A stretch of DNA of 43,339 nt from a virus: positions 1-43,339 of the IMG/VR virus record IMGVR_UViG_3300014720_000060; one strand, written 5' to 3'. The notes under the pieces are model-generated. The model searched no databases and was not told where the DNA came from. It saw only the letters and a program-made list of their open reading frames with translations. Shown piece by piece: positions 29,077-36,795 of this stretch. The translations under genes were made by a program, and so were the position numbers. Numbering within the stretch: position 1 is the stretch's first letter; the number at the start of each line of letters is the position of its first letter.

Positions 29077-30819
29077 TTAGTATTTAGGGTAGGATTTGTA
29101 AAATACCATGTTTCCGCAGTCCCAAACCCGGCGATAATTGTTTTTAAACATGTTTATGCTTTCGGAAAGACTGGGATCAAAACCTTCTTTTAATATATTT
29201 TGCAAATTTTTCTTTTGGGCACGATATCTTTTTATTATGCGATTGGCTTTGAAATAGAAATAATTGGGTTCTGAACAATGGTTTAAAACAAATCCCAGTT
29301 TATTGTAAAGATTACCATCACTTCGGCGCAAATCTGCATATGAAACGATGCCCCGGGGATGATAGATTTGCTCAAAGAAACTGAGAAGTTTACTGGCTCC
29401 ACCAACAATGCTGGTGTCTTTTTTATTACAAAAACGAATCAGTTCATAATCCATGTCCTGTTTTTTGGTGAACCGGGGTTTGTTGAATGTCATGACCCCC
29501 ACCAATTCATCATTATGATACAACCCCAATGCAATTTTGGCGTGATCGATTCCCTGAATATGGTTGTGAAACAGGAAATCGTTTTTGGTTGAACAATTTA
29601 TTTCACGAATCTGGCAGTTTCTTGCAAAAATTTTATTGGAAAGACCCAATGCATTTTTAATAATGCTTTTCCATATGGTTTTTGATTGTTCCCGTTCCCA
29701 TTCGTGCGAAAAAATATGATAGATTCTTATGTTATGGTTCTTGAAAAGAAGGGTTTTTTCATAAAGTTTGTTTTTTTCCTTGCTTTCAAGGTCGGCATTT
29801 GAAGGAAAACAGGTCCCGAACGAATGCCAAATAAGACCGTGATATTCAAATGCTATTCCCCTTTCCGGCAAATAGATGTCCAGTTCTTTTCCTTCCAGCA
29901 AAAAGTTTTCAACCACTTCTCCCGGGTAAATGCTGCGTATATACTCGGCTATTTCCTTTTCCTGACGACTGCTGTTGGGATCACCATAACAAAAATGACA
30001 AAAAACATTTTGCCATTTGCCGTCGCTCAGATCTTTTTCCATAAAATTACCACATTCTCGGCATTTTAATTGTATTTTGGATTGATTGGCAGTTTTAAAT
30101 TCTTCATTTTTGCATAACTCAAAATTTTGTTTTTGAACTTCATTTTGGACATACCCCAGCCAGTTTGAATTGTAATTGTGTCGGTATCCCACATTAATGT
30201 TTTCATAAGTTGCAAGTTGGTCCGGATTGTACTTGTTGGTTACTAACCCGTTAAGATCGTGCAACACATGGTAAAATCTTTCACTCCAGTTCAGATTCTC
30301 TGATGTTTGCAAGTATGCCGTACGCTCTAACACTGAACAAAGAACATCCCTGTTTTGTTTCAGATCGTTTGTATAAACAAGATTGGCTCTTTTTTCATTT
30401 ATCCGTTTTTGTATCCACGTTTTAAGATCTGGATTCGAAATGGTTAGATAATTTTTGTTGTTATAATCCTGAAGAAAATTTGATACGCACTGTTGGTAAT
30501 TCTGTTTCTTGGTTTTGCTGCTGCTTTTCCAAGGTTTTACCTTTCTTGCGCATGTTTGGCTGCAGAATTGTTCGTAACCGTCCTGAAATGTTCGGAATCG
30601 GACATATTTTTGATGGCATCCATCGCACTTTACTGGCTGGTTAATGTCGTTTAAAATGCAATATATGCGTTCAGAAACCGATCCATTTATGTTTTTTGTT
30701 TGATCCAGGATAATTTGATAAGATTGGCTTTTCTGAAATCCGTCCCGGCGTATGATGGCCGTGTTTATTTTGCCAGTTTTTGTGAACAAATTATTTTTTA
30801 TATAATCTTTTATCTGCAT
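29077..30819 (-). CDS. Free-standing homing endonuclease, Vsr-like nuclease with Zn fingers (Hef-type)
   Basis: A 580-residue protein inserted between the sheath gene and the DUF5856-like gene. It has two zinc-binding clusters (C65/C68/C86/C90 and C253/C256/C274/C277), then a PD-(D/E)xK, Vsr-like nuclease core at about 284-335: SRQEKEIAEYI, LDIYLPERGIAFEYHGLIWH, with acids near E287, D314 and E325. A C-terminal GNAT-like or DUF7487-like region spans about 400-560 (LVGVMTFNKPRF; YELIRFC; YADLRRSDG; KLGFVLNH). Such proteins are mobile genes of phages. Its ATG follows a long hairpin without a clear ribosome-binding site, so expression is probably weak or controlled. Confidence 0.8.
   Translation of the reverse strand: MQIKDYIKNNLFTKTGKINTAIIRRDGFQKSQSYQIILDQTKNINGSVSERIYCILNDINQPVKCDGCHQKYVRFRTFQDGYEQFCSQTCARKVKPWKSSSKTKKQNYQQCVSNFLQDYNNKNYLTISNPDLKTWIQKRINEKRANLVYTNDLKQNRDVLCSVLERTAYLQTSENLNWSERFYHVLHDLNGLVTNKYNPDQLATYENINVGYRHNYNSNWLGYVQNEVQKQNFELCKNEEFKTANQSKIQLKCRECGNFMEKDLSDGKWQNVFCHFCYGDPNSSRQEKEIAEYIRSIYPGEVVENFLLEGKELDIYLPERGIAFEYHGLIWHSFGTCFPSNADLESKEKNKLYEKTLLFKNHNIRIYHIFSHEWEREQSKTIWKSIIKNALGLSNKIFARNCQIREINCSTKNDFLFHNHIQGIDHAKIALGLYHNDELVGVMTFNKPRFTKKQDMDYELIRFCNKKDTSIVGGASKLLSFFEQIYHPRGIVSYADLRRSDGNLYNKLGFVLNHCSEPNYFYFKANRIIKRYRAQKKNLQNILKEGFDPSLSESINMFKNNYRRVWDCGNMVFYKSYPKY
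29081..29088 (-). promoter_or_regulatory. Late promoter octamer CCTAAATA
   Basis: Minus strand, 5 bases before the GTG at 29075. It lies within the last codons of the upstream homing endonuclease gene and supports the GTG start. Confidence 0.6.
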
Positions 30820-33871: not shown

Positions 33872-33879
33872 TATTTAAA
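33872..33879 (-). promoter_or_regulatory. Late promoter octamer TTTAAATA
   Basis: Minus strand, 5 bases before ATG 33866. It contains the terminase stop codon TAA. Confidence 0.6.
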
Positions 33880-35053
33880 GAACCTTCCAACCTTCTTTTT
33901 CTAAATATTCCATTTCCACGTCCCGTTCATCCCGGTCGGAATTTGAAAACATTACGGGCATGCTGGGCATTTGATCTTCCCGCCCGCCAAATTGATATGT
34001 TATATTTTCATTCCGTTTGAATGGGGTGATGCTGCTGGGTCGATTATTGGTGTCTCGGCCCGTCACTTCAAAATATTTTTCCACCAATTCATCATTCAAA
34101 ATAAGCAGGGCCATGGCCATGCTCATGACACAATCATCAAAATTATTCGCACCTTTTCGGGCGGCCCATGTTCCGTTGGGATAGCGGGTGAAATTTTTCA
34201 GTTCATCCAATGTGGTCATGTCCCGGAAAACAATTGCCCGAAGTTCATTGATCCAATATCGCATGTTGATCACTGCCTGATATTTTGTGTTTGTGTTGGT
34301 GAAAATTCCGGGCTTTTCAAAAGTTTTGCCGTGGGAATAGCTGATGATTGGGTCATAATTATAATTTTCAAAAAGGGCATCCACCACTTGTGCTCCGCAA
34401 TTGTTCCGTTCAATTAACAAGGGAGGATTGCCCCATTGACCCAATATTTCCAATAATTTTGTTGTGAAATTATAAGGGGTGATGGTGTTGTCCCGGAAAC
34501 ATGCCACCTGCCTTATTGCACTCAGGTCGGCCAGGTCAAATATCTGCACCACACTGCTGGCCTGTCCTACCCCTTCGGCCACGTCCACGCCTGCCACATA
34601 CACCCCGTTTTTCATGGGCTGTTCCCATATCTTGTATTTGCCTTCGTCAAAAATGAAAAGAGGACTGCTGCAGGAACTTTTATATTTTTCATAATCGTCC
34701 CCATTCAGGGCAGATTCTCCCTCCTGAAGAAAACAATTGTGTACATGAAAATCATTTGCAAAATATGTGCTTCCACCGTCTACGTTCATCAAATCATAAA
34801 CATCTTCATTTCCGTCATTTATGATTTCTTTTATTTTTTCTTTTTTGTTGTTTTTTAACTCTAAATAATCTTCTATTTTAAAATTTTTTGCAATTATTAT
34901 TTTTCCATCTACAACAAAAGGATGGTCGTGTGTTACTCTGATTTGATTATTTTCAGTTATAAATTTTAATATGGGTTTATGAAGTTTTCGGACACCCTTA
35001 AAACCCATATAACCGTTAGGTGTTAAAACTTTATATTGTTTATTAGTTTTCAT
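33875..35053 (-). CDS. Large terminase C-half fused to intein C fragment
   Basis: A 392-residue protein starting at ATG 35053 (MKTNKQYKVL). Residues 1-106 are a split-intein C fragment with block B THDHPF (41-46), an ISxNxD-like middle and terminal VHN (104-106). Residue 107 is Cys+1 and starts the terminase nuclease half (286 residues): VAGVDVAEG (first Asp), LLIERNNCGAQ (Glu) and NNFDDCVMSMAMALL (Asp), the RNase H-like DNA-cutting domain of gp17. The ATG overlaps the end of the endonuclease gene by 11 bases, so it is coupled to it. Alone it cannot be a motor; it needs trans-splicing to the upstream half. Confidence 0.9.
   Translation of the reverse strand: MKTNKQYKVLTPNGYMGFKGVRKLHKPILKFITENNQIRVTHDHPFVVDGKIIIAKNFKIEDYLELKNNKKEKIKEIINDGNEDVYDLMNVDGGSTYFANDFHVHNCFLQEGESALNGDDYEKYKSSCSSPLFIFDEGKYKIWEQPMKNGVYVAGVDVAEGVGQASSVVQIFDLADLSAIRQVACFRDNTITPYNFTTKLLEILGQWGNPPLLIERNNCGAQVVDALFENYNYDPIISYSHGKTFEKPGIFTNTNTKYQAVINMRYWINELRAIVFRDMTTLDELKNFTRYPNGTWAARKGANNFDDCVMSMAMALLILNDELVEKYFEVTGRDTNNRPSSITPFKRNENITYQFGGREDQMPSMPVMFSNSDRDERDVEMEYLEKEGWKVL
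34736..35053 (-). other. Split-intein C fragment (106 residues)
   Basis: It has the block B T-x-x-H motif at 41-44, block F-like strand VYDLMNV, and block G HVHN ending at Asn106, followed by Cys+1 of the extein (34733-34735). Its start, MKTNKQYKVLTPNGYMGFKG, resembles the AceL-TerL intein C fragment, which is also about 104 residues long and begins before block B. That is an atypical, very N-terminal split point. Confidence 0.88.
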
Positions 35054-35948
35054 CGTCCCATATAATTTTAAAATCACACTTTAAATGATTTTGTATTTCT
35101 TTTTGTCTGATTAAATCTCTTTCTTTTGTGGACTCTCTTTTGTGATGTTTTTCGTAAACTTCATAAATCGTGTTTGTTTCATGACAATAACCATCCGGAT
35201 AATAACCAATAACTGTAAAAAAACGATCTATAATACAATTATCCAGTTGTTCTTGTTTATCTAACAATTCCTTTTCTCTTTTGCCTATGCAATGAAATTT
35301 AGTATCCGTTCTGCTCATTCTTTTTTGATATGCAATCCGTCCGCCTAATTGTCTTCGTTTTTTTCTTTCAGGATCCATGTTTCTAACAATTCTTTCATCA
35401 TAATATTTCTTTTCCCAATTTTCACCATAAAGATACTTAAAATGATTTGGAGAATTGGCACTTAATGTGCACCCCGGTGTTTTACAATAAGATTTTTTTC
35501 TTATTTGTTTTAAAATAGGATCAAACGTGATGTATTTTCCACATCTGCAATATTGTTCTCGAATCAAATTAAAATTATACTTTCCGGCTATTAGCAATCT
35601 GAACGTAAAATAAAAATTGGAATTTCTGCAATTATTTTTATAAAAATCTGTATAAAAATACAAAGCTTTATACAAATGAGGATTTTCTTTTAACATTGTT
35701 CGATTTTTAGCTTTTCCAAAATATTTTGTATAATTATATTCTTTATCATTTAAAATTTTAGACACTTCTTCTTTTGAATAAATTATAGGTAAAGAATCTA
35801 ACTGTTGTGTTTGTTTTTTATAAAATTTTTCAACAATTTCTCTTTGGTATTGCCCCGGTCTTCCTTTTCTTTTGAAAATAAAGTCTTTGTTTTTTGTCGA
35901 TTTACAATTGTTTATACAATTGTTCAATTGTAATTGTTGATGGTTCAC
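35043..35948 (-). CDS. Vsr-like (EDxHD-type) homing endonuclease inside the split terminase
   Basis: A 301-residue protein lying between the two intein halves, overlapping the upstream one by 47 bases and the downstream one by 11. A zinc-like cluster (C134/C136 ... C155/C160) sits in the middle. The C-terminal 80 residues are a Vsr-like nuclease: GKREKELLD (E225), YPDGYCHETNTIYEVYEKHH (D252, H268, H269) and KERDLIRQKEI (D278). This matches the endonuclease class found with fractured genes and split inteins. The start is GTG at 35948, preceded 6 bases upstream by a late octamer embedded in the intein-coding sequence. It probably targets the uninterrupted terminase gene. Confidence 0.82.
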   Translation of the reverse strand: MNHQQLQLNNCINNCKSTKNKDFIFKRKGRPGQYQREIVEKFYKKQTQQLDSLPIIYSKEEVSKILNDKEYNYTKYFGKAKNRTMLKENPHLYKALYFYTDFYKNNCRNSNFYFTFRLLIAGKYNFNLIREQYCRCGKYITFDPILKQIRKKSYCKTPGCTLSANSPNHFKYLYGENWEKKYYDERIVRNMDPERKKRRQLGGRIAYQKRMSRTDTKFHCIGKREKELLDKQEQLDNCIIDRFFTVIGYYPDGYCHETNTIYEVYEKHHKRESTKERDLIRQKEIQNHLKCDFKIIWDDEN

Positions 35949-36795
35949 CCTTACTATTTAGTATTTCAAGAACAGTTTCTTTTGCTATACAATTGCCAAA
36001 TTCCTGGTCGAAAAGTTCCCGGCTGCCCAGACTTTTGATGGTATCATTTTTCCACTTTTCGTCCCGACCCGGCACCTCAATCCAATCCACCCGCTCGGTT
36101 TTCCAGTTGTTTTTGCCCTCCAATCCATCCGTGTATAATTGGTAAAAAAGATTGCCGGTTCCGTTCGGTGTGCTGGCCACAAAGATTTTGCTTTTTTTAC
36201 TGGAGGAGATAATCGGATACACGGCCGACCAGAAAGTATCCACCATGTTGTTGTCAATATGAGCCAACTCGTCAATAACCAATACATTGACGGAACTGCC
36301 TCGGCCTGCATCAGATGATGTGGTGCTGATGCTGATACGGCTTCCGTTGGCCAAACCCATGGCGGTTTTACCATATTCAGACACTCCCGGTTTCAGATAA
36401 TTGGGAAGATTTTCATAAGCAAGCCGCACCCGGGCAAAAATTTCCTTGGCAGTTTCCTCTTTGTTTGCCACCAAAAGAATTCTTTGATCTTCATTAAAGC
36501 ATGCCAGCCAAAGACAGTAAATTGTCATGACGGTTGTTTTTCCTGCCTGACGACTGGACAGTAAACACACGAATCGATTGTCCCGCAAGCTGCGCAAAAT
36601 TCTTTTTTGATAAGGATGCAGTTTGATTTTGATGCGACCCACATCCAGATTCACGATATAAAAATGGTTTTCGGCAAAATGCAGAATGTTTTGTTTGCAC
36701 TTGGAAACTTCCTTGATCATCTCGGCGGAATATTCAAATTCAGCCTGGGAAGTGGGAAGATTTGGATTACCCAAATATCTATCATTTGGTTTCAT
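35902..36795 (-). CDS. Large terminase N-half (ATPase) fused to intein N fragment
   Basis: A 297-residue protein. Residues 1-268 are the gp17 ATPase domain: Walker A SSRQAGKTT (80-88), Walker B VLVIDELAH (171-179, catalytic Glu176) and coupling motif ASTPNGTGN (207-215). The extein stops at FDQEFGN (268) and Cys269 begins the 29-residue intein N fragment, which ends at a TAA stop. T4 gp17 has 610 residues; joining this half to the 286-residue C half gives 554. The ATG lies 23 bases from the divergent gene at 36819. Splicing must join FGN to CFLQ. Confidence 0.93.
   Translation of the reverse strand: MKPNDRYLGNPNLPTSQAEFEYSAEMIKEVSKCKQNILHFAENHFYIVNLDVGRIKIKLHPYQKRILRSLRDNRFVCLLSSRQAGKTTVMTIYCLWLACFNEDQRILLVANKEETAKEIFARVRLAYENLPNYLKPGVSEYGKTAMGLANGSRISISTTSSDAGRGSSVNVLVIDELAHIDNNMVDTFWSAVYPIISSSKKSKIFVASTPNGTGNLFYQLYTDGLEGKNNWKTERVDWIEVPGRDEKWKNDTIKSLGSRELFDQEFGNCIAKETVLEILNSKGEPSTITIEQLYKQL
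35905..35930. repeat. Cluster of CAATTG palindromes at the intein break
   Basis: CAATTG occurs at 35905, 35917 and 35925, at the end of the intein N fragment and the start of the endonuclease gene. The same hexamer lies at both splice junctions (35990-35995 and 34734-34739), in the context CAATTGT. Confidence 0.6.
35955..35962 (-). promoter_or_regulatory. Late octamer ACTAAATA within intein-coding sequence
   Basis: Minus strand, 6 bases before the endonuclease GTG at 35948. It encodes part of the intein residues ILNS while matching the spacing seen at other genes. Confidence 0.5.

What the first reader, a model, noticed from the sequence alone, without database searches (positions are those of the whole stretch)
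33875..36795. Atypically split intein breaks the large terminase gene around a homing endonuclease
Seen directly: the ATPase half ends in a 29-residue intein fragment beginning with Cys; the nuclease half starts with a 106-residue fragment containing THDHPF and ending VHN before Cys. A 301-residue endonuclease gene lies between and overlaps both. All splicing residues are intact. Established: AceL-TerL type inteins are split at the same unusual N-terminal position, within terminase genes, and fractured genes with split inteins often carry such endonucleases. Inference: packaging-competent terminase (554 residues) forms only by trans-splicing, so DNA packaging depends on meeting of two separately made proteins. 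The C fragment aligns well with the AceL-TerL C fragment from memory, yet differs at most positions, so it should be a new member.
Basis: partly seen in the sequence, partly recalled or inferred. Interest (0 to 1): 0.92.

Follow-up and report, generated by a model that had tools for sequence, protein, structure and literature searches.

The report
Terminase gene split by mobile intein
A phage's DNA-packaging motor gene is cut in two by a mobile element, a split intein with its own DNA-cutting enzyme; the two protein halves are predicted to find each other and weld into one working protein, which makes this a new member of a small known class with unusually clear signs of recent spread.

Summary
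Confirmed. terL (minus strand) is two genes. The N-half is 268 extein residues plus a 29-aa IntN. The C-half is a 106-aa IntC plus 286 extein residues. A 301-aa endonuclease gene overlaps both. IntC matches the solved atypically split intein Cat (6dsl_B, E=8e-11, 38% identity); IntN aligns end to end with CatN (38%). All splicing residues are present, and 268+286=554 aa equals the uninterrupted terminase of a near-identical relative. I found dozens of similar split terL inteins in viral contigs. The window differs from Cat in site: most insert before codon 268 (QEFx^CEF, as in Cat), the window and five others one codon later (GN^CF, no Glu at +2). Five of those six inteins form a supported clade, yet their terminases are scattered among intein-free lineages. 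The nearest relative is intein-free, the cassette is AT-rich (27% vs 44% GC), and a ~0.6-kb divergent tract centred on the site looks like co-conversion during homing. The endonuclease is an unannotated Vsr/DUF559-like family found mostly in this slot (62 of 82 loci). Splicing and cleavage are inferred, not shown. New member of a known kind.

The parts
35992..36795 (-). TerL N-extein, 268 aa ATPase part (Walker A SSRQAGKTT at residue 80, Walker B VIDELAHID at 173)
   Evidence: Pfam Terminase_6N 5.1e-18, PHROG terminase large subunit 4.6e-57; 97.8% identical to uninterrupted TerL of L025
35902..35991 (-). IntN, 29 aa, begins Cys1; stop codon included
   Evidence: colinear with CatN of 6dsl, 11/29 identical; homologues at the same place in L096, L097, L181, L249
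35043..35948 (-). companion endonuclease, 301 aa, GTG start; N-terminal helical part, Cys4 zinc-ribbon-like part (C134, C136, C155, C160), C-terminal Vsr/DUF559-like nuclease with invariant D252, E263, E266, H269, D278
   Evidence: 42-sequence family alignment; AlphaFold2 pLDDT 90; Foldseek PDB rank 1 1vsr, rank 4 3r3p_B I-Bth0305I, not significant; viral library hits to homing endonuclease/DUF559 models
34736..35053 (-). IntC, 106 aa, ATG start, ends HVHN
   Evidence: CatC 6dsl_B E=8.1e-11; PT-HINT 3.4e-4 and Intein_splicing 0.011, both below cut-off
33875..34735 (-). TerL C-extein, 286 aa nuclease part plus stop; first residue Cys+1 replaces Glu269 of intein-free relatives
   Evidence: PDB 3c6a 6.4e-13 and T4 gp17 3cpe/3ezk; 99.0% identical to L025
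34536..36391 (-). cassette plus the flanks (about 400 bp of the N-extein side and 200 bp of the C-extein side) that diverge from the nearest intein-free relative: inferred co-conversion tract
   Evidence: 65 mismatches in 599 bp of these flanks against 62 in 3599 bp of the surrounding block; lowest identity centred within about 110 bp of the site

Best explanation
This is a mobile, atypically split intein of the AceL/GOS/Cat TerL type carrying its own homing endonuclease. Shown from sequence: the gene fracture, a complete two-part HINT intein with all splicing residues, and overlapping gene order. Inferred: the two terminase halves are translated separately, IntN docks into IntC, Cys1 and Cys+1 carry out class-1 splicing with Asn106 cyclisation, and a 554-aa terminase results with Cys in place of Glu269. 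Inferred from comparative data: the endonuclease cuts intein-free terL at the GN/EF site in co-infecting phages, and repair copies the whole cassette plus a few hundred bp of flank.
For: Homology to a solved atypically split intein. Same layout in L096 and L097 and many related split terL inteins. Purifying selection on IntC and EN: pN 0.08-0.30 against pS 0.73-0.86. Nearest relative L025/L002 is intein-free. Cassette 27% GC in 44% GC flanks. Co-conversion-like tract, Fisher p=1e-23, bounds chosen after inspection, and lowest identity close to the site. Site-B intein-bearing terminases fall in separate places on the TerL tree (6 changes for 6 rows), while 5 of the 6 inteins form a clade, 99/98. 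EN relatives lie in the same slot in 62 of 82 loci.
Against: No experiment, proteomic or read data. The IntN match alone is weak (E=0.64). Cat has Glu at +2 (6dsl ^CE) while this intein has Phe, so its splicing efficiency cannot be assumed. The structural match of EN to Vsr and I-Bth0305I is below significance (E 0.6-1.0). The donor phage is not sampled. Parts of the TerL tree are affected by long branches.
Confidence: 0.9

Rival explanations
1. The intein is dead and the two halves act as a two-subunit terminase without being joined.
For: No splicing data; unusual +2 residue compared with Cat.
Against: All splicing residues present in the window and in L096/L097; strong purifying selection on IntC; in L249 the EN has decayed while IntN and IntC are open and intact, which points to a retained splicing need.
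Confidence: 0.05
2. The interruption is removed at RNA level (group I or II intron with an endonuclease), as reported for terL of phage ICP1 (PMC10448857).
For: Endonuclease genes beside or inside spliced terL transcripts are known.
Against: No Rfam family in the window; both ends of the interruption encode an in-frame intein aligned with a solved one; the C-half has its own start codon.
Confidence: 0.02
3. Assembly artefact or chimera of two phages.
For: Abrupt GC change at the cassette borders.
Against: Precise codon-level insertion, and the same three-gene architecture in independent contigs L096, L097 and L181.
Confidence: 0.02
4. The split intein has been co-opted to time packaging (conditional splicing), beyond being a selfish element.
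For: Split inteins persist after endonuclease loss in L115 and L249.
Against: Near-identical relatives do without it; patchy distribution and recent acquisition fit a selfish element.
Confidence: 0.06

Closest known systems
Cat (consensus atypically split TerL intein, PDB 6dsl; designed from GOS-TerL and AceL-TerL according to PMC11766414)
   Same: short IntN (29 vs 30 aa), long IntC (106 vs about 104 aa), terminase host gene in its parents, Cys+1, same split position, 38% identity in both fragments
   Different: Cat structure keeps EFE^...^CE exteins; the window has GN^...^CF, one codon further on and without Glu+2
AceL-TerL and GOS-TerL natural split inteins
   Same: IntN of 25 and 37 aa split after the first helix (PMC13014065, PMC11766414); TerL host gene
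   Different: sequences not held here, so no direct comparison; GOS-TerL uses Ser1, the window uses Cys1
[quoted passage not shown] 2009, cited in PMC13014065 and PMC10448857; the paper itself could not be read)
   Same: split intein flanking a free endonuclease gene; from my own knowledge those endonucleases are Vsr-like
   Different: this endonuclease passes no Pfam or NCBIfam cut-off and has no significant PHROG match; the split is near the N-terminus of the intein
I-Bth0305I (EDxHD homing endonuclease, PDB 3r3p) and Vsr (1vsr)
   Same: best endonuclease neighbours by fold of the C-terminal domain in the PDB; invariant acidic and His residues
   Different: Foldseek E 0.6-1.0; 14-16% identity; different N-terminal parts
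Contiguous TerL mini-inteins L070, L072, L073, L112, L117, L119, L121
   Same: homologous intein in the same host gene
   Different: one polypeptide, no endonuclease, inserted before Cys268

Membership tests
Intein (HINT, class 1) | Cys/Ser1, block-B TxxH, block-F Asp, C-terminal His-Asn, Cys/Ser/Thr+1 | tested here: met
   C1, T41, H44, D87, H105, N106, C+1
Intein (HINT, class 1) | homology to a solved HINT domain | tested here: met
   6dsl_B E=8.1e-11 over residues 4-103
Atypically split TerL intein (AceL/GOS/Cat) | natural split leaving IntN of about 25-37 aa after the first helix | tested here: met
   IntN 29 aa, ends at the same place as CatN
Atypically split TerL intein (AceL/GOS/Cat) | host gene is the large terminase | tested here: met
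Atypically split TerL intein (AceL/GOS/Cat) | same insertion codon and Glu+2 as Cat (a common trait, not treated here as defining) | tested here: not met
   Cat EFE^/^CE; window GN^/^CF
Atypically split TerL intein (AceL/GOS/Cat) | protein trans-splicing activity | not testable with these tools
   needs expression of the two halves
Fractured gene (split intein flanking an endonuclease) | endonuclease ORF between the split-intein halves | tested here: met
   repeated in L096, L097, L181
Vsr-like / EDxHD homing endonuclease | Vsr-like catalytic fold with conserved acidic and His residues | tested here: inconclusive
   pLDDT 90 model; 1vsr and 3r3p_B among the best PDB matches but E 0.6-1.0; weak DUF559 in one family member (E 0.04) and in L116 (0.021)
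Homing element | intein-free alleles, horizontal spread, co-conversion | tested here: met
Homing element | site-specific cleavage of the intein-free allele | not testable with these tools
   needs purified enzyme

The most novel reading that the evidence does not exclude
The window, L096, L097, L181 and L249 form a distinct lineage of atypically split TerL inteins that has moved its insertion point one codon downstream of the Cat-type site, into terminases that lack the ancestral Cys268. It brings its own Cys+1, which overwrites residue 269, and splices without Glu+2. It spreads with a terL-dedicated Vsr-like endonuclease and may leave a Cys269 scar when lost precisely (L013, L014).
Probability: 0.55. 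Interest if true: 0.65.

Novelty: new member of a known kind. Interest (0 to 1): 0.55.

Why it matters
Short-IntN split inteins are sought for protein labelling; a lineage that tolerates Phe at +2 would widen the usable extein sequences if it splices. For evolution, one insertion region in one gene shows every stage in related phages (empty, Cys without intein, split with endonuclease, split with decayed or deleted endonuclease, fused contiguous intein). That makes the origin, spread and loss of split inteins directly testable.

Tried and rejected
Pfam, NCBIfam and PHROG did not annotate the endonuclease. PDB sequence searches with its 3-, 8- and 42-row profiles found nothing relevant. A 3-sequence AlphaFold2 model was useless (pLDDT 37) and was replaced by the 42-sequence model. 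Pseudoalteromonas phage XG4 looked as if it held IntN (hit to residue 297), but its terL is continuous. The scan of bacterial/archaeal genomes for the C-half found no relative. RNA intron rejected: no Rfam match. A test against the whole aligned region did not single out the junction (36-42% of windows are as low), because other parts of the contig are more diverged; the tract stands out only inside its high-identity block. Several primary papers (Bachmann 2015, Stevens 2018, Dassa 2009) were not held.

Full report
Observation. Three overlapping minus-strand ORFs occupy 33875-36795. The first (35902-36795) encodes 268 residues of a T4-type terminase ATPase domain followed by 29 residues starting with Cys. 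The second (35043-35948) encodes 301 residues. The third (ATG at 35053, stop at 33875) encodes 106 residues ending HVHN and then 286 residues of terminase nuclease domain. Pfam, PHROG and PDB searches identify both terminase parts. 268+286 gives 554, exactly the length of the uninterrupted terminase in contig IMGVR_UViG_3300020179_000026 (L025), to which the parts are 97.8% and 99.0% identical.

It is an intein. The 106-aa piece matches the C fragment of the solved consensus atypically split intein Cat (6dsl_B, E=8.1e-11), and the 29-aa piece aligns end to end with CatN (E=0.64 alone; 11/29 identical). Cys1, block-B Thr41/His44, Asp87, His105, Asn106 and Cys+1 are all present. The split position and fragment sizes (29+106) match Cat (30+104, PMC11766414). 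The general Pfam intein models see IntC only weakly (PT-HINT 3.4e-4, Intein_splicing 0.011, both under their cut-offs).

It is not unique. A search with IntC profiles brought 80 viral loci; reading the junctions gave 71 distinct records, many of them split TerL inteins with a short IntN. L096 and L097 have the same three-gene cassette at the same codon, with 65-66% IntC and 55-56% EN identity. L181 and L249 are further members.

Insertion point. In Cat, the L073 group and most others the intein sits before Cys268 of the terminase (QEFx^C-E-F). In the window, L096, L097, L181, L249 and L106 it sits one codon later (QE[FY]xN^C-F), and the +1 Cys replaces the residue found in intein-free relatives, Glu in the window's own relatives (GAA to TGT). 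Five of these six form a clade on the IntC tree (99/98); L106 falls elsewhere and may be an independent case or misplaced. Two intein-free lineages close to the window (L013/L024 and L014/L016) have Cys at exactly this position without an intein. A scar of precise intein loss is a plausible reading, not shown.

Mobility. On a terminase tree the six site-B alleles need six changes, as many as there are rows, each lying apart from the others among intein-free lineages; their inteins nevertheless cluster. The nearest relative of the window is intein-free. The cassette is 27% GC in 44% GC terminase DNA. Within a 4.2-kb block that is about 98% identical to L025, the 400 bp upstream and 200 bp downstream of the insertion carry 65 mismatches in 599 bp against 62 in 3599 bp elsewhere (Fisher p=1e-23), with six amino-acid changes over about 233 codons nearby; the lowest-identity 300-800 bp windows are centred within about 110 bp of the site. 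The tract bounds were chosen after inspection. I read this as co-conversion from an unsampled related donor.

The endonuclease. No curated model names it. Its relatives lie between IntN and IntC of split TerL inteins in 62 of 82 loci (some loci share a contig); most of the others share only the C-terminal domain. Forty-two sequences share invariant D252, Y254, N259, E263, E266, H269, D278, R281 and C291 and a near-invariant Cys4 cluster. The AlphaFold2 model from that alignment has pLDDT 90; its best PDB neighbour is Vsr (1vsr), and the homing endonuclease I-Bth0305I is fourth (E 0.6-1.0, not significant). Phage DUF559 and homing-endonuclease models appear in the viral library. I therefore call it Vsr-like with moderate confidence. 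IntC and EN are both under strong purifying selection (pN 0.08-0.30, pS 0.73-0.86), so the cassette has been functional over the divergence of these phages.

Life cycle. Related loci show the stages: EN present (L114), EN deleted to a 69-bp gap with the split kept (L115), EN decayed to an 86-aa remnant with the split kept (L249), and a fused contiguous intein without EN (L073, L112, L117, L119, L121). The direction is inferred: loss of EN followed by fusion is simplest for L114/L115/L073, but fusion could also be ancestral.

How it most likely works. Separately made halves associate through IntN and IntC, splice by the class-1 route, and give one 554-aa terminase; the endonuclease spreads the cassette to intein-free relatives. 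Splicing, cleavage and dependence of packaging on splicing are not shown here. The kind of system is known (AceL/GOS/Cat TerL inteins; fractured genes), so I file this as a new member, with a one-codon site shift as the feature most likely to be new. I could not compare it with the natural AceL and GOS sequences, which are not held.

Noticed in passing
L104:1977-7077: A terminase gene apparently broken into four ORFs by three split inteins (TerL 5-86, 87-173, about 178-267 and the C-part), with a Vsr-like endonuclease ORF between two of them and a LAGLIDADG domain inside the third; the full protein would need three trans-splicing events.
   Followed up: partly
L126:2298-5671 and L129:463-3057: Terminases in four (L126) and three (L129) pieces, with intein-like fragments at further sites within the ATPase part as well as at the site studied here.
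   Followed up: partly
L097:2933-4900: The N-half of this split terminase also carries a contiguous intein with a LAGLIDADG domain inside Walker A, so this terminase would need cis- and trans-splicing.
   Followed up: partly
L013/L024 and L014/L016/L029/L030, terL codon 269: Intein-free terminases with Cys at exactly the +1 position where other relatives have Glu; a possible scar of intein loss.
   Followed up: partly
L115:1350-1640, L249:4700-5600: Split inteins whose endonuclease is deleted (69-bp gap) or decayed (86-aa remnant with frameshifts) while IntN and IntC stay open.
   Followed up: partly
window 29077-30819 (-): A 580-aa HNH/homing endonuclease ORF (PHROG 3339, 4e-93) after the tail sheath gene is a second insertion: in L002/L025 the same place holds about 50 bp.
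   Followed up: partly
L110, L130, L166, L177 between IntN and IntC: The same slot holds unrelated nucleases or unknowns in other phages: a NUMOD3-bearing, GIY-YIG-like protein, a DUF7487 protein, and MTES_1575/DUF559 proteins.
   Followed up: partly
L106:4905-7281: Site-B insertion (GN^CF) in a distant terminase whose intein does not group with the other site-B inteins; possible independent shift.
   Followed up: no
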